Positions 3,629 through 24,630 of a stretch of 64,000 bases of DNA are shown here, in pieces. The notes under the pieces were generated by a model. That model had not been told where the DNA came from. It was given only the letters and a program-made list of their open reading frames with translations, and did not search any database. Positions within the stretch are counted from its first letter, which is position 1; each line of letters starts with the position of its first letter. The position numbers and the translations under genes were made by a program. Source of the DNA: Tricholomella constricta. Its lineage: Eukaryota; Basidiomycota; Agaricomycetes; Agaricales; Lyophyllaceae. Location: assembly GCA_013368375.1 (NCBI GenBank), contig JAACJP010000007.1, positions 1 to 64,000 on the forward strand. Reading direction: 5' to 3'.

Positions 3629-3725
3629 ATGCGTTTTGCGAGTGTTTGCTTGAATACGTGCCTTCACGTGATCGCGGCTCAATTTAAAGTTGAGCGCGCT
3701 GACGAGCGTCCTCCTCTCCCCCTCC

Positions 3726-5405
3726 ATGGCCATGGCCAGTCGAGCTCTAGAGATCCCTGAAATTCTCGCCCTTATCTTCCAGTTTCTGAACAATGCCTCC
3801 AACGCGTCCGTTGCACGCGTGTGCAAGCAATGGTCGGACCTCGCGCTGGACATTCTGTGGAGGGAGGTGAATGACCTCCACCGGCTGTTGAGTCTCCTTG
3901 CACCTCTCGAGGATGCGGAAAACGGTCTATGCGTGAGTTCCTTTTCAATTCCTACATGTCTGGATCCTTACGTGCAGGACAAGGCTTTCAAACGACCACT
4001 GGAGTCAAGTGACTGGCGCAGGTTCGAGCGCTATCGTTGGCGCGTCAGACGCCTTGCCTATCCTGGGAGGTCGCGTCACCTGCACCAGAGCGCGTTCGAC
4101 GATATCGCTCGTTCTCGAACCAGTCTTGACATTTTCCCAGCTCTCCATACTCTCCAATGGAGCGCCCCACAATCTTCATGTGTGATGTTCATGCATAAGA
4201 ACATCAAGACCTTTGTAGTCATTCTTTCCCCTAATGCTCTGGACATTAGGCCCGTGTTTGACAATGCTCGGACTCGAATGCCCGACATCACGCGTCTCAG
4301 TCTTAACCTGGGCTTCTCCAACCGTTCCATCCAATCCCACACCATGAGTCTCCTGCGTAGCCTGACGAAACTTCAAAAGCTGATACTTTTCCGATTCTAC
4401 CTCACGATCAAGCTCGCTGAGTCCGTTTCCCAGCTCAACAACCTCGAGTCCATCGAATTTTATAACGTCCAGGAAGTAGGCCTCTGTGACCCCTCTGATG
4501 TCGTGCCGTTCGAGCCAACCCTCGCCCAGGACTCCTTCCCATCATTGTCGGACCTGACCATCACCGTCGCCTTTGACGACGCAGCCCGTTTCCTGAACCA
4601 AAGCTTCGCCCCGACGAACATCACCACCCTCTACCTCGAATCACCAAGACTCGAAGCCCCCGCCGACTTCCACCATCTCATCACCACCATCGCCTCAAAG
4701 TGCCAGTTCCTCAAAACACTTGTGCTTCGCTCCTACATCGACACCAGCAGGACCCCTGCCCCCGTCCCCACCTCTGGAACAACCGACACCACCCAACACA
4801 TAACCCTCCGACCGCTCCTCAAATGCCGGAACCTCACCTCTCTCCGTATCGAGCACCACCTCCCCCTTGGGCTCCAGCAAGCAGACATCGAGGAGCTCGC
4901 CAGGGCCTGGCCCGCCGCCGAGCGCCTCCTGCTGAACACCGCACCCGCGGACATCCTCTACTCCCCCCTCACGCTCCGCGCGCTCCTCCCCTTCGCGCAG
5001 CACTGCCCCGTCCTGTGGAACCTTGGCCTCTTCCTCGACGCCACTGCCACGGCCGACCTCGAACTTGAACTAGACGTCGGCATGCCAACCCCGCAGTTCA
5101 AGGCCCTGCGCGACCTCGAGATGGGCGTATCCCTTCTCGACGACGCGTCCACAGGCGCAGCTGCGCTCTTCCTGAGCCGCTTGTGGCCCCTGCACCTGCA
5201 CTGCAGCCTCGACGCTTGGGCCAACTGGGACGAGCCGCTGGAGCCGGGGATGGTGCCGGCGCTGGTGGAGGCAGCGCAGGAGCGGTTCGAGCTGTGGGAG
5301 AAGGTGGAGAACATGTTGCCTGCCCTTGTGCGGTTAAGGGGGGAGGAGGGAGAGAGGACGGGGGTGGGGGCGGGGCGGCAGGTGGAAGAATGGGGTGCTG
5401 GGTGA
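3726..5405 (+). CDS. F-box/LRR-like protein
   Basis: An F-box-like N-terminus (ALEIPEILALIFQFL, then VARVCKQWSDLALDILWREV) is followed by irregular leucine-rich repeats, as in the large agaricomycete F-box families thought to be SCF ubiquitin-ligase substrate adaptors. The start is placed at the ATG at 3726; a second ATG in frame is at 3732. Positions 3933-3977 (GTGAGT...GTGCAG, 45 bp, in frame, no stop) look like a short intron. The paralogue at 33.3 kb keeps the same 45-bp segment, so this could be an intron or coding. Without it the product is about 544 residues, with it about 559. The tail is Gly/Glu-rich. A diverged, broken copy lies at 33.3-35.1 kb. Confidence 0.8.
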   Translation: MAMASRALEIPEILALIFQFLNNASNASVARVCKQWSDLALDILWREVNDLHRLLSLLAPLEDAENGLCVSSFSIPTCLDPYVQDKAFKRPLESSDWRRFERYRWRVRRLAYPGRSRHLHQSAFDDIARSRTSLDIFPALHTLQWSAPQSSCVMFMHKNIKTFVVILSPNALDIRPVFDNARTRMPDITRLSLNLGFSNRSIQSHTMSLLRSLTKLQKLILFRFYLTIKLAESVSQLNNLESIEFYNVQEVGLCDPSDVVPFEPTLAQDSFPSLSDLTITVAFDDAARFLNQSFAPTNITTLYLESPRLEAPADFHHLITTIASKCQFLKTLVLRSYIDTSRTPAPVPTSGTTDTTQHITLRPLLKCRNLTSLRIEHHLPLGLQQADIEELARAWPAAERLLLNTAPADILYSPLTLRALLPFAQHCPVLWNLGLFLDATATADLELELDVGMPTPQFKALRDLEMGVSLLDDASTGAAALFLSRLWPLHLHCSLDAWANWDEPLEPGMVPALVEAAQERFELWEKVENMLPALVRLRGEEGERTGVGAGRQVEEWGAG

Positions 5406-7415: not shown

Positions 7416-7423
7416 CAAATAGC

Positions 7424-8055
7424 CACCTATAGTTCCCAACAATTCCCTCCTATTAGAGGTGGATAGTTAGTGCAAGTCCGGTTATAGTTAGAGGGCATTT
7501 GAGCACCTACCTGCGTGCTTCAATAAATATTGAATACCGCCTGGACTTTTTCAAATGCTGCGAAGGCTGACCGGTATGGCCAGAGCCGCTGCCGGTCGTG
7601 CCTAGGCCATCAATGTTCCCATCACCATCACCATCAACGCTGCCAGAACAGCCGTCGTCGCTGTCTGTCGGTCCGCCACCCGCCCATCATTCCGCCATCA
7701 GTCCGCCATCAATCCGCCATCAATGTTCCCATCAACGTCGCCATCAACGCTGCCAGAACAGCCGTCATCGCTGTCTGTCGGTCCGCCACCCGCCCATCAT
7801 TCCGCCATCATTCCGCCATCAGTCCGCCATCAATGTTCCCATCACCATCACCATCAACGCTGCCAGAACAGCCGTCGTCGCCGGTCCGCCACCTGCCCAT
7901 CATTCCGCCATCAGTCCGCCATCAGTCCGCCATCATTCCGCCATCATTCCGCCATTCCGCCCATCATTGCGCCCCCGTTCGTCGTCGTTGGCCACAACGA
8001 GCTCCCCAGCTTCCTCAAAATTCTTTGTAAAATCTTAAAAAAATCGCAGTAAATA
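7424..8055 (+). repeat. Left 632-bp terminal inverted repeat
   Basis: The reverse complement of 18422-19053, with one difference noticed by eye near 7814 and its mirror position. The outer 170 bases are unique. The inner part has about three tandem units of roughly 110 bp (each starting near ATCAATGTTCCCATCA), built from shorter TCCGCCATCA steps. Such subterminal arrays are candidate transposase-binding sites. Open frames across it (7530-8052) are by-products of the repeat, not genes. Confidence 0.93.
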
Positions 8056-8088
8056 GAATTTAAAATTGGGTGGCATTTTGGCATAAGT

Positions 8089-11000
8089 CTACACGTCAGA
8101 AGCAACCTGGAGGACATTATGAGCTAGCTCTGCAAGCAGGGTGTCCTCGTCGTCGTCATCGTCGTCGTCCTCAGCCTCGTCAGCCTCGTCAGCCTCTTCG
8201 GTGCCCGCGACGCCCGCGCCGCCCTGCACCGAAGCCGTCTCCGTGTTCCCTCCGCTGTCAATGTCCATGTCCGTGCCATCGTCAGCGTCCGCAGGCTCTA
8301 CGCTCGTTCCCGGGGTGAGTGAGCCAGTGAAGCCCCGAAGTGATGCGATCTTGCGAAGCCGCCGCATGTGTTGGGCGTTGAATCTCTCGAGGCGTTCCCT
8401 TTGCAGCGTGACCTGATGCGCAAGCGCGCTGTCCGTCTGGCCGATTACGTCCTCCATCTTCTTCAGATACGCCTCTTCATCACGGATGTACGTTACGAGG
8501 CGTGCGATTTCGATATTGAGGCGCTGGATTTCTTCATGAGCTCGCTGGATTTTGAAATACTCGTCCATGAGGATGCGGGCAGCAGGAGCTGCCCAGGGGC
8601 GTTCGCGTACGTCGTCTCGGGTGTCGGCTAGGAGGTCGAAGTCCGCAAGAAATGCGTACTCGACTACCACGTCCCAGGAGAGCTCTGGGCGAGGCGGGGA
8701 GAGGGCCTGAGCCGCGGCGTTGTACCTCTCGAGGGCTGTACGAACCGCTTGAGATCGTGCTTTCAGTGCGTTACCTATGTGCTTCCGTAGCTTGTAGCCT
8801 GCCGGGTATGTTAGCGGGGCAGTAACGAAGCTAATTGGCGCTCACCGGTCTGAGACATGTTCATCTTGGTCAATTCGAACATCCTCGAAACGATAAGCGC
8901 CTCGAGCGTGTCGAGGCAGCGTTGATAGCGGCGCTTCCCAGTCATTGCAGCCGCCTCGCCCCACTCAGGACTCGATGACGTCCACCGCTCTTTTACGCCC
9001 AGCTTCACCTCCAAGTCCTGAACGACGGCCAGGTCCTTGTCAAGATTTTCGAGGGCATGACGGCGCGCAGTTTCCTTGGAGGCAGTGAAGTCGCGACCGC
9101 CGTGTGTTTCAGGGGTATCGATGGCCCACGCTGCCGATGCAGCATCCAGCTTCTTCCTGAAATGCAGGCCATCAGCACTGCGGCAAATATGCGTGAAGGT
9201 GGCACTCACCGGCTTGCCTCGAGGTTGACGAGCTTCTGGTAATATTCCATCTGCAACGTCTCTTGAATGGGCTCCTTCGAAAGCCCCCGCAAGTACTCGC
9301 CTTCCTCCTTCAACCATTGCTCAAACACCTCCGTCGACGCCACCTTCTGGTCGGCCATTTGCTTCTCCAATGCTGCCTGGCCATTGATGAGATCGATGGC
9401 CTGCCTATAGTTGTTGGCGAGGAATTCGCCTAGGTGCGCCACTAAGACTCAAAAGAAAGAATCAATGCGCAAAACTCACTGAGATTTTGGTACGTGTCCA
9501 TCTTGTCCATGTGTTTAGCGAATTCGACAATCCTTTGCTTCCTGTGGAAAACGCTCGCGTAGCGAACAGACGAGGCCAACGCGTTGGACTTGGAAAAGAA
9601 ACGCTCGCAACCCTCCAGGTCCTCGAGGCCCATGCCCTTGACGTACTTGGCAAGAAATGAGAGCTGGCAGAGACGGTTGTGGGCATGGCCATGGAAGCTT
9701 CCCACTAGCGATTTGTAGAGACGCTCACGCGCCTCTGGCCCGAGAGGGCTGCGATCGAGAGTGGTCCCGAACTTGCAGCCAATATCATAGCCGCCACCCA
9801 GGCGGGCCCCAAATGCTTCGAGGAGCGTCTCCACAACTGCCAGCGGATATTTTGCCCTAAGGTGACAGCTTAGCATAGTAGTGGGTAGGAGGGGGGGGAG
9901 AAAACGCGCACAGCTCACCACTCTTCACCATATCCACCACAACCAGCACAAATCCATGCCGGCAGAGGGCGAGGAAGGCCCCAGTTTCATCAAAGATCCC
10001 CCACATCCGAGCAGTGATCTCATTAGCCATGTTCTTCCATCGGTCGGCGCATGGATTGGGCTCGGCCCCGTCGCCCTTCAACGAATTAGTGACGTAGGGC
10101 GTGGTGCATAGCTGGGGCCTTACCGTGTCATCTCCAGCAGGAAGCAACTCTGCTAGCACTCCCTTAGCCCACCTATCTACCCGCTCCCTGCTGAGGTAGT
10201 AATCCCCACCAATTTCTCGGTCATCTCGCAGCTCCTTCGATGCCCCGGGCTCGATCTCTCCATTTTCGTCGACAGTTTCGGGGCCTCGACGCAGCACGCG
10301 CTTGAGCGAGTCATTTCCGTCCATTGTAATAAGCATCTGGAATATCAGTTCATCCTCATCCTTCAGCTTGTACGTACAGGCGGGGCAGGCGTGTCGCAGC
10401 CTCCAGTTTGGCGTGTCACGCTTCAATGCGGCCTGAACTCTGGCATCAGCGGCGGCTCGGATGGCAAGGTACTGATCATAGGCAATGGAAAATTGTTTGC
10501 TGAGGTACGGGCGGAATGGGACCTGAAAAGTCGTCAGAGATGCTGCATAGAAGAAAGCAGTTTGTATACGCCATGGAGATCACATAGCCCCTTGACGAAG
10601 GGTTGAATGGCCAGGTGAGGGCACCTCAAGTGGTCCGTCCTGTAAAGCTCAACCACTCGGATGGTGAAGGCGACGGAAGGCGTGTAGGGCGCCGAGGGCA
10701 GGAGGCCCTGTAGCACGAGAGACGCCGCGACGCCTGGGCTTCCCGCGAGAAGAGGTACGTTTTCCTGATATGCTTCTAGGACATCCTGTTCAGCAAGACT
10801 GGAGCACTCAATATGGTGGACAAAACTCACCAAAAACATCGAAGGCTTGCACGGAGTAAGCTGACTGCACTACGGCGTCGACGGGAAGGGGTGCCGCCAC
10901 GGCCTTGCCAGACACGCCTAAGGCCTCGCTCCAGTCCAGATAGGCATCGACCATCCCGTCCAGTTGGCCCTCAAACGCCTGGGTCCGGAGGAGTACTCTG

Positions 11001-11477
11001 TCGTGGCGCGATCGACGATCGACGCGCCTGCTGCTGCGCGAAGGGGTGGGGGTTGCTCCGCTATTGCTGCAGACTTAACTCACCTTTTTGGCCGCAAATC
11101 TTCCTCTAGTAGCTCTTGGAACTCGCCACCTGCGTGACTAAATTCCACCGGAATGCTGCCGTCCAAAACGTCGTCTATGTTGATGCCTTGGCTGGCGGGC
11201 TCATCCATCGACTCATACTCGGGCATATCGCGGATGGAGTCCATTACCTTCCTGTCCCGCTCATCCATTGCTGAGGAGACGTCAGTGGCTGGGGGCTGAT
11301 AACTGAGCAAGGCCACGCACCATGGAGCCGGTCTCGTATCTCTGCTTCCGTCTGCTGGCGAAATTGCTTGAGAGCCTTGGGGTTGAGGAGCTTGCCTTCA
11401 GATTTGGACGACTTGGCCACCCCCTGCCCGTACAGCCGCAGGCTCTGGGACGCGCCCCTGCGCTTTCGGAATGACAT
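8089..11477 (-). CDS. KDZ transposase
   Basis: A multi-exon transposase predicted to cut and join DNA through an RNase H-fold DDE core. The start is the ATG at 11477 (MSFRKRRG); the stop is TAG at 8089-8091. Exons 1-3 are 11321..11477, 11084..11270 and 10831..11033. Later exons cover 10.8-8.1 kb. Recognisable blocks in order: an N-terminal region ending in DAYLDWSEALGVSG; EAYQENVPLL; CPACTYKLKDEDEL (cysteine cluster); DETGAFLALCRHGFVLVVVDMV; GGYDIGCKFGTTL; GSFHGHAHNRLCQL; GCERFFSKSNALA. The C-terminus has WDVVVEYAFLADFDLL, AHEEIQRLNIEIARLVTYIRDEEAYL, then an acidic tail. These blocks are characteristic of basidiomycete KDZ transposases. The junction after exon 3 (near 10830/10798) does not keep frame with consensus sites, so there is either an unusual splice site or a 1-2 base lesion. 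Confidence 0.9.
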
Positions 11478-11784
11478 GAACAATGAGTTGAGTTGTGATC
11501 ACATGACCGCGTTGATTCCATTCAACAATTGAAGTCCGGAATCTGCGGTTCTCCTGAACTCCTCCTTGATTCGTTTATTTTATCCTACAAGGTACAGTGG
11601 CATCTTCTCCTGAGTGGCTGCTCCCAGCCCACACTTTCGCAACGTGCTTGGCGCCTTCAGGGATCAAACCTGGGACCAAGGCGACAAACACGCTGCGGAA
11701 GGGTGGGCTGGGAGTGACTGCTCCTCAGCTTTGCTTCGTTCCTTGCTGATGAGTTTTGGCTTTCTAGCGCGCGCATTGTCAGCC
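11478..11784. promoter_or_regulatory. Divergent promoter with a 30-bp hairpin inverted repeat
   Basis: A 307-bp gap separates the divergent transposase and dioxygenase genes. In it, 11621-11650 and 11685-11714 form an imperfect inverted repeat (30 bp, about 5 mismatches; outer arms CTCCCAGCCCAC and GTGGGCTGGGAG). The loop can pair further (GCCTT/AAGGC and CAGG/CCTG). The layout suits a shared bidirectional regulatory site or a transposase-binding palindrome; its function is inferred. Confidence 0.5.
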
Positions 11785-13357
11785 ATGCGATCGGTAAGGA
11801 CCCACTCTCAAGAGCACGGGACAGACTGAAAGCTTTGCAGTAGACGCGATCAGGTGCCACCTTCTCCCCTTACGAAGTCACGCCAATCCACTGCGCCCCG
11901 GGCTTTGATTTTGCCGCCCTCCTACAGGACTCAATACGCCTGGAGTGCAGCGCTGACGACAACGCAGACAGCGCCCACGAACCCTCCGCCAACCCCACCA
12001 CCATCACCGAGCCGGTTGAGCCTGCCGGCGTTCCGGCCTGCGCTGTGGCAGCGGAGGGGGGCCTTGCTCTGCCTGGGCCACAGCACTGCTTGGGCCAGGG
12101 GCACTCGCTCCCTGGCGCAGCGGCTCCCAGCGCTACTTCACGCAACCACGCCAAACGCCGCCGAAAGCGAGAACACCAAGTTCTTCGCGATGGCCATGCT
12201 CCTCGGGTCAAAACGTTTGAGAAATACGTTCAAACGTCCGTCCCGCTCCAGACTCTGCTCGCCAGCGAAAGCCTCCCAGCCGCCAAGGGCGCTTACTCGG
12301 CCATGCGCGCCACGCAGAAGAGTGGCGACCAGAAGCGCTGGTCAGTTGCCGAGTTGGTTTCAAAGGGGCTGAGCCTAGTCAAGTGGGATGGATTGCAAGT
12401 GCTTCTCTCTGCTGCCCTATGTAACCTACTGAATGCCCCCTCCAGCGACAACCGACCCCTCCTCGACAACTCAGGCTCGATCATCGCCGTTCTCGTGGGC
12501 CAGCCCCGCGATGAAGGCTACCAGCAGGCGGTAGACGCCGCCTATGCCAGCATAGCGCGCGAGGGAGCAGCGGCCTCCTTCGCTCGGGCAGATGCGAAGC
12601 ACAAGCGGGGGAACTTCCCCGCCCTCAATGCCGGCGTTACGTACGGCAAAGGGACCACCGTGCCAGTCACCCTCAATAACCACCAGCACAAGGGCATGGT
12701 GGCTCGTCTCCTTGCCGACGCCAGTATCCAAAGACTGGCTGCATTTGGAAGCGGTGCGTACATGCCTTTGCCACGGCTTTCGCTCACTAACGCGGCACTG
12801 GTGCTGCAGCTAGCTTCCAGCTGTGGGCCCCAAACGTTTACAAGTATTACCAGGAACACCTCGATCCCCTCTGGGCAAGGATGCCCCACCTTCAACGCAA
12901 CTTCAACCGCAGCGTATTTCCCAGCGCCGCCTTCAATTTTGGGCCCAACGTCTGGACCTTTCGACACCGCGATTCACTCAACTGTCCGTTTGGGTGGTGC
13001 GCGATCCAGGCCTTAGGAAACTTTGACGCAACCCGGGGGGGCCACCTTATACTCTGGGACGTAGGGCTTGTCATCGAGTTTCCGCCCGGCGCCCTTGTGC
13101 TCATTCCCTCGGCTACGATTTCCCACTCCAACGTTCCCGTTCAGGAGGGCGACATTCGCGCGTCGTTTACTCAGTACTGCGCAGGGGGTTTGTTTCGGTA
13201 CGTCGATAATGGTTTTCGAACAGAGAACGAGCTGAAGAGGGAGGACGCTGAGGCGTACGCGAGGATGTGTGAGCTTAAGGAAACGCGGTGGAAAATGGGT
13301 CTGGGACTGTTCAGTAAATTTAATGACATTGTAAAAGTATCTAGCAAGTCCCTATGA
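11785..13357 (+). CDS. TET/JBP-family 2-oxoglutarate dioxygenase (transposon cargo)
   Basis: Four exons give 471 residues: join(11785..11793, 11844..12394, 12446..12753, 12810..13357). Family members oxidise 5-methylcytosine (TET) or thymine (JBP) in DNA using Fe(II), oxygen and 2-oxoglutarate. The catalytic half is in exon 4. Iron ligands are H342 and D344 (in FRHRDSLN), and the distal histidine is H395 (SATISHSN). R406 (DIRASFTQY) is the likely 2-oxoglutarate ligand. The stretch GWCAIQALGNFDATRGG...LWDVGLVIEFPPG is the fungal TET core. The N-terminal half has KRRKREHQ, a likely nuclear signal, and IIAVLVGQPRD. Intron 2 (12395-12445) uses a GC donor (GCAAGT). The nine-base first exon is the least certain part; the frame itself is sound from about 11870. 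Substrate base is not shown by sequence alone. Confidence 0.9.
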
Positions 13358-14686
13358 ACGTAGAAAATATTGTCAACGGTCAACGCGTACGCCTGGAGAA
13401 ATGTCGTTACCTTTTGACGCCTGGTACAAGCGTGCATGCAGAAGCCAAACAGAAGTTTATATGCGACTTGAGCCTGTTTTTAGCGCATTTTTGGGTCTTG
13501 TCAGCACTACTGGCACAAATCGGCCTCAAGCCTTGATTGAAAGTGATCAGTACTTCAGGTCAAACAGCCAGCCACGTATCCCAGCACTCAACGAGATCCG
13601 CAGAGCAGCACACGCAACATTGTTGACCGTTTGTTTTATTTATGTTCTGACTTTTGATCGCACTTCAATCATACTGTAATGACCTACCAGCGCAATTTCA
13701 TTGTGTTTTCTGTAACATACTCTATAGCTTCGTCGCTAGAAGCTGATATTTTTTTTGGAGCTACAGCCCTTCGCGATCTCAACGAAATTTAAGATCAGTA
13801 AGGGGGGGTCAGAAATTTTGAAAATTCACCTCTTCAGTTTTCGATTTTTTCTACCGGCCCATATACGTAGGTTGATTGTAGTTTAATTGGCGGCAACCGA
13901 TTACTTGCATCGTGCTATAGAGACTGGCGATCAAGGCGGGAGTACCGAAACAAATATATTTTGGACTTTTTTCACAAAGGATTGGCTTGATATCACAAGA
14001 CATCATGCCACACCCTTGATTATATACACTATCAGTACAACATATTTTTCTTGGCAAGGGGCCTTTGAGGTTAGTTCACCCGTTTCTGCTGTAACAACGT
14101 TTGAAGACATTTACTCTTGTTTCGCAACGATAAACGAATATGGGCAGACACTGTGGGCGGAAGTCATTTGAGCCTCATGTATAGCAGACTTTGCGTTAGG
14201 TGCGTGGCCTTAAAATCGCTTGTTGAAAGGTCCTGAAGACAATTATGCTGGACGTGTGGCGCGCCAGAAGTGTCTAAAATAGGAAATAGCAGCGCACATG
14301 TACTGTGCACAAGTGTAAGGCGTGACTATGCCAGATGCTACGTAGTCTTTCCTGTGGTAAGGCTTCTGTCTGTGCTTTAGCGTAACGGGAAACTACGGAG
14401 TGAACTGCGCTCATTTGCAGCAAGTAGTCCTTGGTTCAAACCCTGCCTGCTGCCATTTTTTGCAACTTCAATATGACACAATTTTTTCTTTTCGCAAGTC
14501 CGTGAAGCTGAGGCTTCTGACACACTTCTGAAGGCTTCTCTGTGCATCGCTGATTGACATCAAAAGCCGTGTTCTACGTTAGAGAGTGCGCAACGTCTAC
14601 GGACTACAAAGCAAGGTATTTAGCAGGGGAAGCAGTGACAGACAAGAATAGTATTGGGTAGGTGCAGCAAACATAATATCTCTAAG
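13358..14686. other. AT-rich gene-free interior of the KDZ element
   Basis: About 1.3 kb between the TET/JBP stop and the stop of the hybrid-binding gene. It is AT-rich with no supported reading frame. It probably holds both 3' ends and includes the Pol III-promoter-like segment listed next. Confidence 0.5.
14361..14457 (+). repeat. tRNA-derived SINE-like segment
   Basis: Positions 14378-14388 (TAGCGTAACGG) fit the Pol III A-box consensus TRGYNNARNNG. Positions 14433-14443 (GGTTCAAACCC) fit the B-box GWTCRANNC. Their spacing of about 45 bases is right for a tRNA promoter, and a T-rich stretch follows. The stems of a working tRNA do not form (acceptor and T stems mispair), so this is better read as a SINE head or decayed tRNA. 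Confidence 0.4.
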
Positions 14687-15693
14687 TCAACAAGCCCTGC
14701 CGTGCACCTCACCCGCCATGTACTTCTCCACAAAAAGGATGGCGGCGGGGCCTTCTCCTAGGGTGTTCTTGAGGAGGGCAGGCGCGCGGTGGGTGCCGGC
14801 CGCAGCGCGAGCAGCAGTCCTGCAAAGTTTGCGTCAGTTTCTTTGGAGTGACAAACAGTTCGGCCCCACTCACAGGCCGCGGTAAACGCCAGGGCGGTCG
14901 CCCGAAGTGACTAACCAATAGCACTCTTCGTTGGAGATCCTCCTGGCCGACGCTTCCGCCAAAGAGGACAGGGAGTGAGCAGGGGAGGAGGACGAGGACC
15001 CACTGCACGCAGAGAGGCGCGCAGGCGAAGCAGGCGCAGCGTGAGGGGAGGCAGATGTGGCACGAGGGGAGGCAGGCACAGCATGAGGGGGAGCAGGTGG
15101 GTTGCGTGGGGAAGCAGGTGCAGTGCGAGGGGGGGTGGGTTTCAAGGGGCCAACCAGGTCGTTTGCGCACGCATGATCCCATGCCTGGATGGCGTCCTCG
15201 AGAGTGCTAAATCCCTTGAAACGAGCGCCTTCGAACTTGCTTACTTGAGCCGAGGCAGCCAGCCTGTCAATGCAATCAAAAATAGGCTGAAAAGAACAAC
15301 AGAATGACGGGCGCACCAAGTTCGAAACACTCCCGTCCGGCGCCCGTGAAGTACAACATAGCCCTGCTTCTTCTCCTTTCTCCTTGTCGGTGAGAGTTGA
15401 CTGGCGTCGGGTTCGCCACGAAGGCATTCGTCCTCGGCTTTTGCAACGGCATCGTCGATGGCAAGGTGGTTGAGGGCAGAGAGGAAGGTAGCGTCTTCCT
15501 CTTCTGTTTTCGTGGCTGGCAGTCGAAGTGGCTTGACTGAAGAAGAGACAAAGGAGATGGGAAAACTTACACGCTGACTTGGCAGGGGCGGAGACACAGG
15601 GTCCCCGCAGATTTTCCGAAGCGACTGTGATGCAAGTTAGCCGATGTCGTCAAGCATAAATGATGCCTCGTCAACGCGTCACTTACTGTACAT
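14687..15693 (-). CDS. Protein with two RNase H1-type hybrid-binding (viroplasmin-like) domains
   Basis: Five exons give 267 residues: complement(join(14687..14819, 14874..15263, 15317..15536, 15571..15624, 15687..15693)). Phases agree and the total is divisible by three. Domain 1 (about 77-130) reads GYVVLHGRRTGVFRTW, then QVSKFEGARFKGFSTLEDAIQAW. This is the N-terminal hybrid-binding fold of eukaryotic RNase H1, also found in caulimovirus viroplasmin, which binds RNA:DNA hybrids or dsRNA. A low-complexity Pro/Ala/Ser linker with PASPR-like repeats follows. Domain 2 (about 204-260) reads CYWLVTSGDRPGVYRGL and is more diverged. No RNase H catalytic domain is present. The gene lies tail-to-tail with the TET gene and head-to-head with the next gene. 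A role in binding transposition intermediates is inference. Confidence 0.8.
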
Positions 15694-15887
15694 GTTGACG
15701 GATCTTGGCTGGCCTCTTAAGCAAGTAGAAATGAGTAGAAAGAGTAAGTATGCAAAGGGGTGAATGCGCAAAGTTCAACGCGACATCAACAAAGCCAACA
15801 CGGTCACGTTATCTAAATATTTGTTAGGCAATCAACAATGTCCCTGCATTTTTTCACTAGTCTGTTCGTTTCAATTTTTGCCGTGTC
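15694..15887. promoter_or_regulatory. Second divergent promoter of the KDZ element
   Basis: A 194-bp space separates two divergently transcribed cargo genes (ATG at 15693 minus, ATG at 15888 plus). It mirrors the arrangement of the transposase/dioxygenase pair. AT-rich; no clear TATA box. Confidence 0.4.
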
Positions 15888-17704
15888 ATGACGACATCCT
15901 GGTCTAGCCGTAATCCCACCTTCGAAGTTCAACCCCCGCGTGTTCGCCTTGCCCAGGACAAATCTGACGCAGCGCGCCATACGCGTGCGTTCAAGGCTGC
16001 GAACAAAAAATTGAACAGAGAAGTTATTGAAAAGGAGGTCGAAGCCTACCTGCTGGACCAGCAGCGTTTTATTAATGACCTTGCAGCTCGGTGCACCGTC
16101 GACGAAGATGTCATCAAGAAAAAAATCACTCACGGCTCCACCTACAAATCAACCCGAGCTCCTTCGTTATATAATGCTATTATTCACCATAAATCCGTAG
16201 AACTGAACAAGGGTATATTTCAACAGCATTTTTCAGATCAAATACTGATATGAGCTCTGTAGACCGCGCAGCCGGAGATTGCCTGCCTTTGAATGAAATC
16301 CGGCGGCTGGCCAGCATGGATGACAGCCTGCAGGGTCGAAATCTGTCCAAGGAGAAAAGACAAGAACTCCTCCAAGAACTCAAGGACGCGCGCGCTGTAC
16401 GCGCAACAGGAGCGCGTGCAAACAACCACGCTGCATGCATTGACGCAAGCAAAACAATTGATGCAATTGTTCAGGAGGTACGCAACAGCTGTCATCCCCA
16501 TTTTAGAACGTATGTCCTGAGTGATCGATCGCCAGATCAAAAACCTCCATCTAAGGACCGGCGTCCGGACAATTGCATTCTTCACACGCAGCGACAGTGA
16601 TGACACACTCGTGCCAACTGTCGCCGCCTCCGATGATGCAGCCCTCAAGTTTTTCCCGGAGGTTTTGAAGCTCGACGTGGGGCGTGTAATGACACAGTTT
16701 GAGCTCTTCTCCGTGTCTGAGAAGAAAGGTGAGTTGGCTTTCTTAAACCTCATTGTGCCGTTTTGACTTGGTTGCAGGCCACCTCGAAGCTGACACGTTG
16801 CCAGCTATGCGGGCAGATTGTGCTCGTCTTATTCTCTTAGGCTTGCGTAAGTTGTTGTTCTGACCGCTCACCCCTCTACAAAGACTGACGCCGCGTTATA
16901 GGGGAAATCACGCACGATCGCAAAGTCAACATGAACTACGTCAACTACCAAACTTCTATCGTCGAAACCCACCACGTCCGCCTCATTGGATGGCCCAAGC
17001 AGGTCCCCTTCATGAGCCCTTCCAATCTTCCAACAAGGGACGATGTCCGCACACTTCGAGTGGCCCTCCAGGAAGAGGAGTGCAAGTGGGAGGTGCTTAC
17101 GCACAGAGAGAGGAAGGAGCATTCGCTAATGCTTTCCGAAGCACAGCAAAGGGGCGAGGAGGTCGGTAAGAAGCGGAAACAGCGCAGCGACAAGGGTACC
17201 ACTCGAAAGCGGAAGAATGCCGGCGCAGAGCCCAGTAGGAAGAAGCCGCGAACTGGACGACACGCCTCCTCCAAGCTGCCCCCGACCTATCAGAGCAACG
17301 AGTTCGTCGAAGATGACGAGGACGATGAGGCCGAGGACAATGGCAGCAGCGGCAGCGGCGGCGGCGGCGGTGGTAGTGGCAGTGGCAGTGGCAGTGGCAG
17401 CGGCAGCGGCGGCGGTGGCAGCGGCAGCGGCAGCGGCAGCGGCGGCGGTGGTAGTGGCAGCGGCGGCAGTGGTAGCGGCAGCGGCAGCGGCAGCGGCGGC
17501 GGTGGTAGTGGCAGCGGCGGCAGTGGTAGCGGCAGCGGCAGCGGCAGCGGCGGCGGTGGCAGCGGCAGCGGCGGCGGTGGTAGTGGCAGCGGCGGCAGTG
17601 GTAGTGGCAGCGGCGGTGGCAGTGGCAGCGGCAGCGGCGGTGGTGGTGGCAGCGAAGACAACGACGTCGGTGATCCAGGAAGGCAGGGCGAAGATGCCGA
17701 GTAG
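15888..17704 (+). CDS. KDZ-element cargo protein with Gly/Ser repeat tail, unknown function
   Basis: Five exons give 534 residues: join(15888..16212, 16263..16477, 16536..16728, 16778..16846, 16902..17704). All phases agree. The N-terminal part is charged and helical (REVIEKEVEAYLLDQQ). The middle has ATGARANN, then LRTGVRTIAFFTRSDSDD, then a block ending in FELFSVSEKKG. Around residue 278 comes NMNYVNYQTSIVETHHVRLIGWP. I recognise this pattern from abundant, uncharacterised agaricomycete proteins, but it has no known activity. Then follow a Lys/Arg-rich region (about 345-385, likely nuclear), an acidic patch, and about 105 residues of Gly/Ser repeat. The basic plus disordered tail suggests a DNA- or chromatin-associated protein; this is inference. 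Confidence 0.78.
17338..17652 (+). repeat. GGCAGC-type trinucleotide repeat coding Gly/Ser
   Basis: About 315 bases of GGC/AGC/GGT/AGT codons in frame within the preceding gene. All six frames stay open here and give spurious Ala-, Pro- or Arg/His-rich frames. The length probably varies between copies by slippage. Confidence 0.9.
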
Positions 17705-18421
17705 GCGACTGAGGCGCCTCAATCTTCCCTCCACACCGTGCCCCCGCCTCCACATCACCTGCTGCCTATTCATGCCCATTGTGGCGGTGGACCGCTCCCC
17801 TCGCCCTACAAATGGCGCTCTTTCTTGCACCCTCCGCCATGCCCTACGCCGCTCACCTATTCATGCCACTCGCGGCGTCGCCCCCTCCCGACACGCCCCG
17901 CTCCTATGAGCTGCGTCCCTTCTTGCTGCCCGCTCTTGCGCTGGATGCTTACTCGCGCCACAACTGTGGCACCACCACCATCTTGATACGCTCCGCTCCG
18001 ACGACGCGAGCTGTGCTCCTTCTTGCCACCCCCAGTCAAGCCCACGCTGCCTCGTGCAGTCCGCGACGGCCCCCCACTGTGCCTCGCCCCCTTCTTGCAG
18101 TGTGACCCTGCGCCTCGCCCTCCTCATCATCGCACTTATCCCGGCAATATTCAGCCCTCTCACTCTGAACGGTGTTCTTGCCCCTTCGTGCCGTGTTTTA
18201 TGTCCCTGCCACTGAGCACCCATCGCTCAACAACCGCCTGCCCACTGCTCCTACTGCACACAGCAGCGGACATCTTGATACGCCCTACTATTGCTTAAAT
18301 ATTTGAAACCATGTCTTAAAATCTCAATGATCATAACATTTTCTTGTTTCTGCCCTTTTAATATGAAAGACTAAAGTATACGACACAATTCACCTTGAAA
18401 GATGGTGGCATATGTGCTCTA
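17705..18421. other. Gene-free interior, 3' flank of the cargo gene
   Basis: C-rich sequence with short repeated phrases (CTTCTTGC, GATACGC, CGCCCC) and no supported gene. It runs from the last cargo stop to the inner edge of the right inverted repeat. Confidence 0.45.
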
Positions 18422-19053
18422 TATTTACTGCGATTTTTTTAAGATTTTACAAAGAATTTTGAGGAAGCTGGGGAGCTCGTTGTGGCCAACGACGACGAAC
18501 GGGGGCGCAATGATGGGCGGAATGGCGGAATGATGGCGGAATGATGGCGGACTGATGGCGGACTGATGGCGGAATGATGGGCAGGTGGCGGACCGGCGAC
18601 GACGGCTGTTCTGGCAGCGTTGATGGTGATGGTGATGGGAACATTGATGGCGGACTGATGGCGGACTGATGGCGGAATGATGGGCGGGTGGCGGACCGAC
18701 AGACAGCGATGACGGCTGTTCTGGCAGCGTTGATGGCGACGTTGATGGGAACATTGATGGCGGATTGATGGCGGACTGATGGCGGAATGATGGGCGGGTG
18801 GCGGACCGACAGACAGCGACGACGGCTGTTCTGGCAGCGTTGATGGTGATGGTGATGGGAACATTGATGGCCTAGGCACGACCGGCAGCGGCTCTGGCCA
18901 TACCGGTCAGCCTTCGCAGCATTTGAAAAAGTCCAGGCGGTATTCAATATTTATTGAAGCACGCAGGTAGGTGCTCAAATGCCCTCTAACTATAACCGGA
19001 CTTGCACTAACTATCCACCTCTAATAGGAGGGAATTGTTGGGAACTATAGGTG
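18422..19053 (-). repeat. Right 632-bp terminal inverted repeat
   Basis: Mirror copy of 7424-8055, of the same length. It ends with GGGAACTATAGGTG immediately before the duplicated CAAATAGC (19054-19061). One base difference from the left copy was noticed by eye. Confidence 0.93.
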
Positions 19054-19317
19054 CAAATAGCGCGTTTACAATTGGACGCTTGCCACATATGGTGCGAAAC
19101 GGTCGGTCCGATCCCCGCCACCATCACAAAGTTCCTATATTTAGAAGGTGATCGGCGGGGTGATTCCGGGGATCAAGATTTAATGAATGCGCGTGATGAA
19201 AGAGGAACCCTAATGATGGCCTTGTGACTGCCGGTGTTTGACGTTGGTCTGACATACCAATCGAGTACAAAATGGTGAAGCGCACCAGCCTTACTGAACC
19301 CCTCACCGCTGCTAATC

Positions 19318-20429: not shown

Positions 20430-21600
20430 TGATTTTATTGGCGGTGGTAGGGATGTCGGAGAGAGGAATCCAGGAGTTGTCGGTGTCGGGTAGGGAAGAC
20501 CAGTGGACAAAATACTCATAACGGTGACCTATCTTGTGAGAGTCGAGAATATGGGAAATAGATGGGGGAGAGTCGGCGAGTTGGAAGGATTGTGGAGAGG
20601 AATGTGGGTGGAATTCAGAGGGATCTTAATAAGGTTCCAATAGGGAGGTGTGAAAAACTGGATGTAGACGAGAGAGATAGAATGGTAGACGTAGCTGATA
20701 TGATTGTAAGCCAATTCATTGAAACAACTGGGAAGGGACCGTGGTGTCAACGATCCAATTTAAGTGACGGTCGAGTTGTTCGAATATTCCAGCAAAGCAA
20801 CCACACCAGTTGGTCGGGCGCATAAGTTGGAGAAGGGAGAACATGAGTGTTGAATATTTTTTCTTGACATTCTTGCAAATACTGAATTTCGGCACAAAGT
20901 TCAGCATGAATCTGATCTAAAAGTTGAGCAAGGTTTTCAGCAGCGGGGACAGTAGAAAGATTGGAACATTTTGGAGAAAAGGTAGGGTAGAAACCTAAGT
21001 TGGCGAAGAAGGGCAGAGTGGACGGTTTGTTGGGGTCAAAGAACGGGATAAGAAGTGAACGCGTGTTTGAGATGTTTGAAGGAACTGTGCGCAGACATAG
21101 ATGGGAGATCCTGTTGGATGGAAACAAAATAGCGAAACTGGAACATTCTTGGCATATTTGAGGAATCTTCTTGGAGTTGTAACCAAAATCTTGGGTTTGG
21201 GCGTAGAATTGTCGAAGATAGAGCGACCAAAGCCAGTCCAGTTGACGAAAGACTTGAGATATTGTGTTGATGTTGGAGGTGGTTGTGGTGTTGGCGATAG
21301 TGCTGGTGCTGAAGACATAGGGGTGTTGGCAAGACCGAAGCCTAAGCCAGCCATGGTAATAGGACATGCTTGAATTGAGGTTTGTGTAGTAATGGGCCGT
21401 GTAAGACCAAAGCCTTTAGCGGGGACCGTAACCAGAAAAGTGTGTTTGAGATTGCAGCAAGAAAGAGTAAGATCGGGGTTATCCCTATCAATATGTGGAT
21501 TGTGGCAGCAAAGCCAATCCAGACCTAGAATAACAGAGAAAGGGACAGAAATTATGCCTAGTGTGATGCACTCGGAGTGTTTGTCCACCGTTAGTTGTGT
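20430..21600 (-). pseudogene. Retropepsin fused to integrase C-terminus and chromodomain (deleted pol)
   Basis: The 5' part has protease-like sequence (FVSSDVITQLTVDKHSEC, GIISVPFSVILGLDWL). The 3' part has integrase C-terminal sequence (AENLAQLLDQIHAELCAEIQ, WNIRTTRPSLKLDR). Then come SRLHPVFHTSLLEP and a chromodomain segment interrupted by stops near 20.75 and 20.64 kb. The missing middle shows a recombinational deletion, not simple decay. Confidence 0.75.
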
Positions 21601-21982
21601 AATTACATCAGAGGAAACGAGTCCGGAGGCAATGGGTCAGTTGTCCACTGCTATTATTGGGATTGGTAATTCCTTTGCGCATCGTGGCAGAGAATGTCGC
21701 ATAGCGAAGACATCCCAAATGCAAGATGCCGAAGCACCGAGTCGACGAGGGCAAAAGTCTTGACGGGTTTGTGATTTGGAAAATTGAGCAAAACCAAAAT
21801 AAAGAAATGGTTGGGAGACGAGGCATTCGTATCTGTAGGAAAATTATAACGAGGTGCGTGGAGTGAGGAAACATGTGTCCATCTCCCGTTATCGAGCCGA
21901 GAATGGACGATGAGCTCCAGAGTGGTCAGATGGGTCCTTACATTGTTGTCCGGTAGCCCTTGGACCTCTGAAGGGAGACCGG

Positions 21983-22633
21983 TTAGGCTTTTCCCGATTT
22001 GGGATCAGCCTTGGGCGTAGATTTAGCTTGTCTAGCCCTCATATCACGCTTTGCGTGCTCAGACATATTGGGACAGTTATTAACTGAGTGTGTACCTTGA
22101 CCGCAATAATAACAAAGATTATTAGCTCGACGATGCTCGTGCTCAGCAGGCATAACCTTTCCACGGCGCATACTATCAACTGCCATTGGAACGATGTCGG
22201 AGGACGACAAGGAAGACGAAGTGTGTGGCACATGAGCGGTAGCCGGAGGTTGCCGAGGTTGAGAAGTAGGGTTAGGAGTCTTGATGTGGTGTTCCTTGAC
22301 CTCCGTTTGACGACAATGGATTCTATTGTCAATAGAAATAATTGTCTTCACATAGTCATTGAAGGTCTTGGGATGAGGGAGAATAACCATGGCATCCTTG
22401 ACGGTTTCTTTGAGTCCTGGGTAGAAATTGTCGATTTTGGAGCCTTCATCGAAGTTAAGGTCAGCAATGATCTCGCGATAGCGAGACACATAATTGGCAG
22501 CCGGCTTGGGTTCTTGCTTGAGCGTATGGACCTTAGCGAGGGCAGTAGCGTGTTTATCAGTATCATCAATGTGTTCCACAAATGCTTGATAGAATCCACA
22601 AAAGTCGTGGAAGTGTTCTGTAAGGGGGTGCAC
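21983..22633 (-). pseudogene. Retrotransposon gag, truncated at the N-terminus
   Basis: A gypsy-type capsid region (AFVEHIDDTDKHATALAKV, then SRYREIIADLNFDEGSK and FYPGLKETVKDAM) is followed by a basic region and one CCHC zinc knuckle (CYYCGQGTHSVNNC). The capsid N-terminus is missing. At 22.64 kb the frame shifts and runs into unrelated LTR-like sequence. Confidence 0.8.
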
Positions 22634-22680
22634 CCACTCCTATATTGCTTAGTCTCTTGTTCTCTGTCATCGGCCCCCAT

Positions 22681-23064
22681 GGTCCTGCCTTAGACATACT
22701 TGCTGACCGCCATACTGTTCTTACGCCCCTTTTGTAGCTATTACTCCCACACTGACACCACTACTTAGATCCTTATCAGTCAGCTGGACAATTGTTATTC
22801 ATCAGTAGTCAGCGCTTTTACATACCGCCTTAGTCACTGGCTCAGTGATGTAGTATATAAGCCTGGGTTGGAGATGGAATATCTCCAACCTGAACAATAA
22901 CAGTATCTTCGGGTTTATACATTGATCAACTCTTAGCTTGCTCTCTCGTCGCCCTCTTCACGTTTCGCACTGTTGATTGCTCACTTGATCACATTTAGGA
23001 CCCTCTTGGCTTGCGCCGGCTTGCAGCTCCTCGCTCGCCTTCGCCCATCCGGACGTCCTCTAAC
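22681..23064. repeat. LTR-like fragment with a TATA box
   Basis: A 380-bp stretch with no reading frame. It has TATATAAG at about 22854 and an inverted repeat shortly after (GGAGAT...ATCTCC around 22870-22890), then pyrimidine-rich sequence. This resembles the promoter part of an LTR read on the plus strand. It is bounded on the right by the solo LTR target duplication. No second copy is seen, so the call is tentative. Confidence 0.3.
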
Positions 23065-23584
23065 TGTTAGGGCAACCCTACAGTGGAGCACTATTACACT
23101 GACAAGGGGGAATCCGAAGTTATATTATGTACAGTAAGGAATGTAGTAGAGGCAGGCCTACCTGACAAGGGGGAATCCAAAGAGAATAGACTAAAGGATT
23201 CCCAGATGTCAGGGGAATGACTATATACGACGTATGTACGTGAGGGCAGGTCCTCTACGGTATACTGTACATGTAATGACAGGGAATGGTCAGCGGCGCG
23301 TGTCTGGACACGTTCCCGACGCTGTTCCCGACGCTGTCCGATCCTCGTGGCGCAAGGTACAGGCACGAGGTCGGGCAGCCGACGTCGGGATGTCGGGTTT
23401 GTCGGGATCGGTGTCGGTACATGTCGGGGAGAGAATTAAATGAGTGTAGGGGTATGTAGGAGTATGTACACAACGCTGGGGTCAGAGCGTCGGGGATGCG
23501 ATTGGGAACGGGACGAGAGTGATCGTGCACAGTCGGGGGATGACCAGTGAGCGTCGGAGAGCGCGAACGGGAGTTCTCCTGACA
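23065..23584 (-). mobile_element. Solo LTR 1 (gypsy LTR family)
   Basis: 520 bp from TGTTAGGGCAACC to CTCCTGACA, flanked by the 5-bp duplication CTAAC (23060-23064 and 23585-23589). It is related to the 3' LTR at 59.4 kb: same order of CAAGGGGGAATCC-like blocks, TATATACGA, and the GTACACGTTCCCGACGCTGTCC-like block. A full element must have recombined between its LTRs here. Confidence 0.85.
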
Positions 23585-23589
23585 CTAAC

Positions 23590-24630
23590 AAGTTCAGGGT
23601 GCGTCTTTTCGATACTCGCGTACCACAATGCTGGTGATCCGTCCTTGAGGTAAAAACTGAAGTACAAAACTTTGTCATAGTCCGTAGGAAGAGAGCGACG
23701 TTGAAGGTGTAGGGCGTTGTTGATCTCTCGAAGGAACGAACTGAGCTGATCGATGGTTCCGTCGTACATGCGCGGTTTGCAGACCTTTGGGATGCCCGAG
23801 CCTTCAGAGCTTGAGGGAGGAGCATGTGGTTGAGGAGCGGCTGAAGTGTTAGGGCAACCCTTACAGTGGAGCGCGGTCACACTGACAAGGGAGAATCCGA
23901 AATTATATTTGATGTACAGTAAACGAAGGTAAGTAAGGCTTACCCGACAAGGGGGAATCCGAAGAGAATAGTGTAAAGGATTCCCCAATGTCAGAGGGCC
24001 GACTATATACGAGTGTAGGATGTGAGGGCCGGTCCTCCAGAGTGTACTGTACATGTAATAATAACAAATGGTGTGCGGTGCGTGTATGGACACGTTCCCG
24101 ATGCTGTCTGATCCTCATGGCTCAGGGTACGGGCACGAGGTCGAGCAGCCGACGTCGGGATGTCGGGACGTCGGTGTCGGGATCAGGGCGCGCGCTGGGA
24201 GGGGGCGGTAACGACAGGAGGTAAGTAAGTATGTACACCGATGCTTGGGTCAGAGTGTCGAGGTCGGGGTCGCAATCAGGCGGCAGTGATTGCATGAGTC
24301 GGGGGACGATCGGTGAGCGTCGGAGGGCGCGAAAGGGAGTTCCCCTGACACTGAAGTGTCAGAGGAAAGTGGAAAGAAGAAGCTGGTGAATGAAGCGGGG
24401 GAGCGGCTAGTATGTTGCTGAGACTTGAGATCACAAAGTGCATCGAGAATAGCCAAATTCTCTGTCTTGCATTGCTCAGAGTCTTTGGAGATGGATTTCC
24501 TGACAGCGTGTACGATGCGCGAAAGTTCCTGTACACCAATTCCAGGGGGGGGGTGTCTCAGGGATAACAATAGAGTCAACAGAGGACGGCGGAGCCTGAG
24601 GAGCTGGGTTTTCGACTGGAATGGACATAG
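23590..24630 (-). pseudogene. Retrotransposon gag relic interrupted by a solo LTR
   Basis: Read on the minus strand, the frame starts MSIPVENPAPQAPPSSVDS near 24.63 kb. It shifts at a run of eight C/G near 24.55 kb, continues GVQELSRIVHAVRKSISKD, and is then broken by solo LTR 2. It resumes at 23846 with KVCKPRMYDGTIDQLSSFL and LYFSFYLKDGSPALWYASI, a capsid-like stretch. It ends where solo LTR 1 is inserted. Two LTR insertions and a frameshift make it dead. Confidence 0.65.
23847..24350 (-). mobile_element. Solo LTR 2 (same family)
   Basis: 504 bp from TGTTAGGGCAACC to CCCCTGACA. CTGAAG flanks both sides (23841-23846 and 24351-24356), a 5-6 bp duplication. It sits inside the gag relic. Confidence 0.8.

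What the first reader, a model, noticed from the sequence alone, without database searches (positions are those of the whole stretch)
7416..19061. Complete four-gene KDZ transposon carrying base oxidation and hybrid-binding cargo
The boundaries are exact: an 8-bp duplication CAAATAGC, 632-bp inverted repeats and no visible decay of the cargo genes. KDZ transposase plus TET/JBP is a known association. The addition of a protein with two RNase H1-type hybrid-binding domains and a conserved unknown protein, in two divergent gene pairs, suggests a self-contained module that acts on DNA methylation and possibly R-loops at its own ends. I do not know of a description of this full gene set as a unit.
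Basis: partly seen in the sequence, partly recalled or inferred. Interest (0 to 1): 0.9.

Follow-up and report, generated by a model that had tools for sequence, protein, structure and literature searches.

The report
Four-gene mushroom transposon with DNA-base oxidase
A complete jumping gene in a mushroom genome carries its own movement enzyme plus a DNA-base oxidase, an RNA/DNA-hybrid-binding protein and a likely DNA-bending protein, and relatives suggest that these genes travel together, so a transposon may carry its own kit for escaping genome silencing.

Summary
Confirmed and extended. Window 7424-19053 is a complete DNA transposon in Tricholomella constricta: terminal inverted repeats 631/632 identical, 8-bp duplication CAAATAGC, four open genes: KDZ transposase, TET-fold dioxygenase, RNase H1-type hybrid-binding (HBD) protein, and an HMG-like protein (HMG box only hinted at). 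The genome holds three more copies with the four genes in the same order; two have their own matching 8-bp duplications. Window copy against these: dN/dS 0.08-0.38 for all four genes. In Hypsizygus marmoreus TET, HBD and HMG-like homologues bear consecutive locus tags (KDZ there untested). KDZ+TET is published, KDZ+TET+HMG I recall (Iyer 2014); I found no description of HBD as a regular member. The TET keeps a conventional His-Arg-Asp-x-x-Asn site, unlike the published AG and PE transposon types. Unexpected: a ~110-nt hairpin with compensatory changes lies upstream of TET; of 19 other places where I found it in the genome, 18 lie just upstream of a TET match, one set in an unrelated Crypton-type unit. 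Likely mechanism: a cut-and-paste element that oxidises 5-methylcytosine to escape silencing; the HBD role (R-loops or RNA silencing) is inferred only. New variant of a known kind.

The parts
7416..7423 (.). left 8-bp target-site duplication CAAATAGC
7424..8055 (+). left terminal inverted repeat, 632 bp (631/632 to the right one)
7606..7935 (+). about three 110-bp tandem repeats with 11-bp sub-repeats inside the TIR; candidate transposase-binding array
   Evidence: function inferred
8089..11477 (-). KDZ transposase gene, 979 aa, 10 exons
   Evidence: Pfam PF18758 E 7.5e-77 over 1-217/217; model
11612..11723 (+). conserved hairpin in the divergent KDZ/TET promoter region, directly upstream of TET
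   Evidence: (I16); places in the genome: held against TET matches
11749..13357 (+). TET/JBP-fold dioxygenase gene, 479 aa, 4 exons (first exon uncertain)
14687..15693 (-). RNase H1-type hybrid-binding (HBD) protein, 267 aa, 5 exons
   Evidence: PF01693 E 7.5e-16; human RNase H1 HBD 3bsu E 4.5e-7; equals D9615_004774
15888..17704 (+). HMG-like protein, 534 aa, 5 exons, Gly/Ser-rich tail
   Evidence: HMG box only hinted at (E 0.076 in a Mycena relative)
18422..19053 (-). right terminal inverted repeat, 632 bp
19054..19061 (.). right 8-bp target-site duplication CAAATAGC

Best explanation
A complete KDZ DNA transposon, probably autonomous, that moves by cut and paste: the KDZ transposase recognises the long TIRs and makes 8-bp target duplications. 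It carries three accessory genes as lasting parts. Shown: anatomy, four-gene linkage over four copies, purifying selection, and three of the genes side by side in a second genus. Inferred: TET oxidises 5-methylcytosine on the element so that silenced copies can be expressed or cut; the HMG-like protein bends DNA to help assemble the ends; the HBD protein binds RNA/DNA hybrids or double-stranded RNA made by the element and counters RNA- or R-loop-based silencing; the hairpin upstream of TET controls TET expression.
Against: No transposition or enzyme activity tested. No empty allele in the assembly. The KDZ frames of copies B, E and F each have a stop in the aligned codons. In the closest pairs dN/dS is high or uninformative (E-F: KDZ 0.49, HBD 0.57, HMG-like 0.76; B-C KDZ 1.2 with 5 changes), and HBD B-E and B-F are 0.55 and 0.47. 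Copy B has no TSD and is a mosaic. HBD dS exceeds 1 in A-B, A-E and A-F, so its ratio is rough. Sequence search with the TET found no TET structure and Pfam Tet_JBP is below cut-off (E 0.14). The HMG-like model failed (pLDDT 36).
Confidence: 0.75

Rival explanations
1. The HBD and HMG-like genes are passengers that one ancestral element picked up; they hitch-hike and do nothing for the element.
For: HBD is the least constrained gene (0.28-0.38 for A against B, E, F; 0.55 and 0.47 for B-E and B-F). A distant KDZ element at C30 has an HMG-like gene but no TET or HBD match in the 10 kb read, so HBD is dispensable for KDZ elements in general. A Cauli_VI gene also sits in a TIR-flanked insertion in a Pleurotus Helitron (PMC4289320, passages read).
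Against: Purifying selection on all four genes between diverged copies; TET, HBD and HMG-like with consecutive tags in Hypsizygus at 48-61% identity.
Confidence: 0.2
2. TET acts mainly for host gene control (domesticated transposon genes), not for the element.
For: Many TET copies in the genome (96 exon matches); Kojima cites reports that oxidised 5mC lies also on retrotransposons and other transposons (passage).
Against: TET sits within mobile elements of two unrelated kinds in this genome (KDZ, and a Crypton-type unit); Kojima argues that the fitness of the element is served.
Confidence: 0.1
3. The TET-upstream hairpin is not an RNA element but a DNA palindrome whose arms are kept alike by gene conversion, or a binding site.
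For: Arms could be homogenised by conversion; no transcript data. The number of further pair types does not exceed shuffles (470 of 500 as high) and the number of pairs changed on both sides is reached by 9 of 500. The structure was predicted on the same alignment, and the sequences come from few lineages.
Against: The stem sequence differs between lineages while pairing is kept (15 of 46 pairs changed on both sides; 43 such cells against 18.2 in shuffles, 0 of 500 as high), 11 pairs vary on one side only, and the apical part is nearly invariant rather than merely symmetric.
Confidence: 0.4

Closest known systems
TET+ Kyakuja and Zisupton transposons (Kojima 2025, PMC12730594; parts 1-4 of 7 of the main text, figure legends and passages read)
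   Same: KDZ transposase and TET gene within defined ends in Agaricomycetes; Zisupton has 8-bp TSDs and TIRs
   Different: The Laccaria TET+ Kyakuja families: 7-bp TSD, no TIRs. Here 8-bp TSD, 632-bp TIRs, an HBD gene, and a TET that fits neither the AG nor the PE residues. 'RNase', 'ribonuclease' and 'HMG' have 0 occurrences in that text; its figures and supplements were not seen.
KDZ-TET/JBP elements of Iyer et al. 2014 (recalled; paper not held)
   Same: KDZ transposase, TET/JBP and, as I recall its abstract, a divergent HMG-domain protein
   Different: The HBD gene as a regular fourth member, exact ends with TSD, and the hairpin are not in what I recall.
CcTet of Coprinopsis cinerea (7vpn, 7w5p, 8jkk; PMC11040006 passages read)
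   Different: 13% identity; Asn at the place of Gly331 (as Asn1387 of TET2), Cys at the place of Asp337
helpo1.3 long copy of Pleurotus ostreatus (Castanera 2014, PMC4289320, passages read)
   Same: 10.7-kb longer copy with TIRs flanking a Cauli_VI gene (capE) and an RNase-H-fold gene (capF)
   Different: Read there as Helitron gene capture; capF is assigned to COG4328, not KDZ; no TET mentioned in the passages. A lead only.
Human RNase H1 hybrid-binding domain (3bsu)
   Same: Tyr, Trp and the Ala-Arg-Phe-Lys stretch kept
   Different: No RNase H catalytic domain found in the element's protein by Pfam

Membership tests
KDZ DNA transposon | KDZ transposase domain | tested here: met
   PF18758 E 7.5e-77, profile 1-217 of 217
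KDZ DNA transposon | defined ends with target-site duplication | tested here: met
   8 bp in A, E and F; none in B; one end only seen in C and D
TET+ Kyakuja as published | 7-bp TSD, no TIRs | tested here: not met
   8-bp TSD and 632-bp TIRs; definition
Zisupton | 8-bp TSD and TIRs | tested here: met
   definition
Zisupton | position in the transposase tree | not tested
   no reference Kyakuja, Dileera or Zisupton sequences at hand
TET/JBP dioxygenase | TET fold | tested here: met
   P0008 model pLDDT 86.4; the 25 best Foldseek matches are TET enzymes or CMD1 (Z)
TET/JBP dioxygenase | HxD...H iron site | tested here: met
   present in the window protein; D345 and H396 invariant, H343 at least 90% conserved in 46 homologues
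TET/JBP dioxygenase | 5mC oxidation | not testable with these tools
   -
AG-type transposon TET (Kojima) | Gly or Ser at CcTet 331 and Asp at 337 | tested here: not met
   Asn348 and Cys354, both invariant in the 46-sequence alignment and present in the window; CcTet letters seen; offset counted from HxD, no residue-level superposition
PE-type transposon TET (Kojima) | HxE in place of HxD | tested here: not met
   HRD
RNase H1 N-terminal HBD (PF01693) | domain match | tested here: met
   residues 80-120 of 267, E 7.5e-16
RNase H1 N-terminal HBD (PF01693) | second copy in the C-terminal part | tested here: inconclusive
   no second Pfam stretch; hhalign to domain 1 probability 9%, E 0.0036
KDZ-linked HMG protein | HMG box | tested here: inconclusive
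   no Pfam HMG match in the window protein; Mycena relative E 0.076, below cut-off; model failed

The most novel reading that the evidence does not exclude
The element carries a two-armed escape from silencing: TET against DNA methylation, and an HBD protein (its Pfam domain is named after the caulimovirus protein TAV/P6, a silencing suppressor by the abstracts) against RNA- or R-loop-based silencing, with a TET-specific structured RNA hairpin that has moved together with TET between KDZ and Crypton-type transposons and controls or protects TET expression, perhaps as a ligand of the HBD protein.
Probability: 0.2. Interest if true: 0.88.

Novelty: new variant of a known kind. Interest (0 to 1): 0.62.

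Why it matters
It gives an intact TET-carrying transposon with near-identical ends and exact boundaries, which makes the proposed anti-silencing role of transposon TET enzymes testable. It adds a hybrid-binding protein and a conserved hairpin to the kit and points to an RNA side of the conflict. TET with the same hairpin also lies in a Crypton-type unit, a carrier not among the 11 lineages of Kojima 2025.

Tried and rejected
Rejected: that the halves on C51, 81 kb apart, are two elements (their outer flanks carry the same 8-bp GACCCAGA); that the hairpin is a tRNA or known RNA (ARAGORN with the bacterial code 0; Rfam 0 up to E 0.5); that it is a widely dispersed repeat. Led nowhere: empty-site search (only the flanks themselves); structure of the HMG-like protein; PDB sequence search with TET alone and as a profile (no TET); hairpin apex in other collections (3 bacterial hits, about 1 expected by my estimate for 257 Gb; 0 in viral contigs). 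Literature listings looked at for Cauli_VI/HBD together with KDZ or transposons: 20 of 170 papers, 15 of 654, 20 of 83,452, 10 of 35, 12 of 127; for Crypton with TET: 10 of 350. Apart from the Pleurotus case (PMC4289320), no listed title or abstract joined them. The R-loop-at-ends idea is not supported beyond a modest skew.
Full report
WHAT IS THERE. The ends are as stated: TIRs 7424-8055 and 18422-19053, 631 of 632 positions identical, flanked by CAAATAGC at 7416-7423 and 19054-19061. The window is the start of contig C7 of a 44.09-Mb, 118-contig assembly. The HBD gene model equals D9615_004774 of Tricholomella constricta over 267 of 267 residues, which names the host (Agaricales, Lyophyllaceae). 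Gene models of mine: KDZ 979 aa (minus strand, 10 exons), TET 479 aa (plus), HBD 267 aa (minus), HMG-like 534 aa (plus). The flanks joined without the element match only themselves, so no empty allele was found in the assembly.

FAMILY IN THE SAME GENOME. TIR searches and BLAST of the whole element give: copy B (C18:661908-673574), C (C18, next to B; no HBD or HMG-like half found, a 6.3-kb insert), D (C45, same match as C up to element position 5322, not followed further), E (C18:471980-487639), F (C51:63940-156284, split by 81 kb). B, E and F have all four genes in the order of the window. TSDs: E CATCAGAG, F GACCCAGA on both outer sides; B none; C and D were seen at one end only. Copy B is a mosaic: its first 2 kb are 96-98% identical to A and its HBD/HMG half 60-80%, while that half is 85-96% identical to E (500-base bins), which may explain the missing TSD. 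Four more places (C15, C71, C75, C82) have TET and HBD matches; the C15 and C71 blocks, 99.8% identical, hold TET-HBD and an inverted half, and no KDZ match is listed there.

SELECTION. Nei-Gojobori counts in my own script, codons aligned exon by exon. Pairs A-B, A-E, A-F, B-E, B-F: KDZ 0.118, 0.091, 0.083, 0.113, 0.105; TET 0.139, 0.132, 0.135, 0.139, 0.138; HBD 0.376, 0.277, 0.275, 0.549, 0.466; HMG-like 0.148, 0.111, 0.107, 0.266, 0.214. Close pairs: E-F 0.49 (KDZ), 0.13 (TET), 0.57 (HBD), 0.76 (HMG-like); B-C KDZ 1.2 with 5 changes, TET no change. HBD covers 183-221 of 267 codons, with dS above 1 for A against the others. One stop lies in the aligned KDZ codons of B, E and F each; none in the aligned codons of TET, HBD or HMG-like. 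So all four genes were kept by selection while the lineages diverged, HBD least strictly; the recent copies look relaxed. Of A, B, E and F only the window copy was seen with all four frames open.

OTHER GENOMES. Three protein searches. HBD: 4 hits, two from T. constricta and two from Hypsizygus marmoreus (only the 7997 candidates sharing most words were scored). HMG-like (first 409 residues as query): 3 hits, two from Hypsizygus, one from Mycena citricolor. TET: 287 hits, 120 listed, the named ones mushrooms such as Mycena, Hypsizygus, Lyophyllum, Termitomyces and Armillaria (taxonomy not looked up one by one; some are unnamed). Hypma_012874 (TET 61%), 012875 (HBD 48%) and 012876 (HMG-like 58%) have consecutive tags, each on a contig of 1,026,882 bases, which I take as the same contig; Hypma_005472 (HMG-like) and 005476 (HBD) are each on a 10,921-base contig. 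Identities of A to B, E and F exceed those to Hypsizygus for TET, HBD and HMG-like (slightly different measures), in line with joint descent; no trees were built.

THE HAIRPIN. Between the divergent KDZ and TET starts lies an inverted repeat (I16). As RNA it folds to -71.9 kcal/mol, z -8.4. The genome search lists 19 matches, of which one is the window and one its own inverse, leaving 17 other places; a pattern for its apex, up to 3 mismatches, gives 17 matches, the window included, with 0 in the reversed control, and adds C6:649394 and C66:80883. Of these 19 places besides the window, 18 lie about 45-650 bases upstream of a TET match on the same strand (held); the nineteenth is copy F, whose TET lies behind the 81-kb insertion. 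At C11 (two places) and C115 the TET match is only an N-terminal piece. Both searches may miss diverged copies. Nine sequences (window, B, E, F, C15, C2, C66, C64, C11): 46 pairs, 93.8% of cells paired, 15 pairs changed on both sides (9 of 500 shuffles as high), 43 such cells against 18.2 in shuffles (0 of 500), covariation score 0.339 against 0.190 (0 of 500), further pair types 31 against 33.3 (470 of 500); slid structures drop to 33-48% paired. The structure was predicted on this alignment and the sequences come from few lineages, so these are not independent events. The C2 hairpin belongs to a unit of 8,682 bases in perfect direct repeat with NDC10_II (E 7e-10) and GCR1_C (E 1e-10) domains near the TET, which I read as a Crypton-type element (the link of these domains to Cryptons, and the tyrosine-recombinase motifs read by eye, are recalled). 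C66 has two such TETs 8,690 bases apart and C64 and C6 have similar TETs, but their carriers were not read. So TET and its hairpin appear to have passed together between unrelated transposons.

MECHANISM. Shown: an element with mobile-element anatomy and four conserved genes. Inferred: KDZ cuts at the TIRs, whose 110-bp and 11-bp repeats may be binding sites; TET removes methyl marks; HMG-like helps the synaptic complex; HBD binds hybrids or dsRNA. The outward strand of both TIRs is G-rich (skew 0.32-0.33 in A, 0.16-0.34 in the other copies), which would favour R-loops when KDZ and HMG-like transcripts read out, but 8.6% of 1021 background windows have as large a skew, so this is weak.

KNOWN AND NEW. 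KDZ-TET elements are published (Kojima, PMC12730594); KDZ-TET-HMG I recall from Iyer 2014. A Cauli_VI gene in a TIR-flanked insertion was seen in Pleurotus but read as Helitron capture (PMC4289320, passages). New here as far as I could see: HBD as a regular member, long TIRs with 8-bp TSD in such an element, the TET active-site type, the TET-linked hairpin, and the Crypton-type carrier. Absence in print rests on the listings in one open-access library, and on the text (not figures or supplements) of Kojima 2025.

Noticed in passing
L028 (G000:C2:1342001-1352000); similar TETs at C66, C64, C6: TET gene (76% identical in the catalytic exon) in an 8,682-base unit in perfect direct repeat, near NDC10_II and GCR1_C domain ORFs: a TET-carrying Crypton-type element, a carrier not named in Kojima's text.
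   Followed up: partly
G000:C51:63940-156284: Family copy with matching 8-bp TSD on its outer ends but 81 kb inserted between hairpin and TET; the insert holds other KDZ and TET matches.
   Followed up: partly
G000:C15:870259-886000, C71, C75, C82: Duplicated blocks, 99.8% identical between C15 and C71 (the other two not read), close to the end of C15, with TET-HBD and an inverted HBD/HMG-side half but no listed KDZ match.
   Followed up: partly
L029 (G000:C30:128001-138000): Distant KDZ element with an HMG-like gene, another unknown gene and inverted repeats near 2013 and 9945-10000; no TET or HBD match.
   Followed up: partly
PMC4289320 (Pleurotus ostreatus helpo1.3): The 10.7-kb 'captured genes' stretch flanked by TIRs and with a Cauli_VI gene may be a TIR transposon inserted in a Helitron rather than gene capture.
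   Followed up: no
window 20750-24000 and 3672-5402: LTR-retrotransposon-like ORFs just right of the element; an F-box-like ORF on the left (by eye).
   Followed up: no
L030 (G000:C6:995101-996300): A second TET class in this genome that does match CcTet by sequence (E 1.6e-8) and passes the Pfam cut-off.
   Followed up: no
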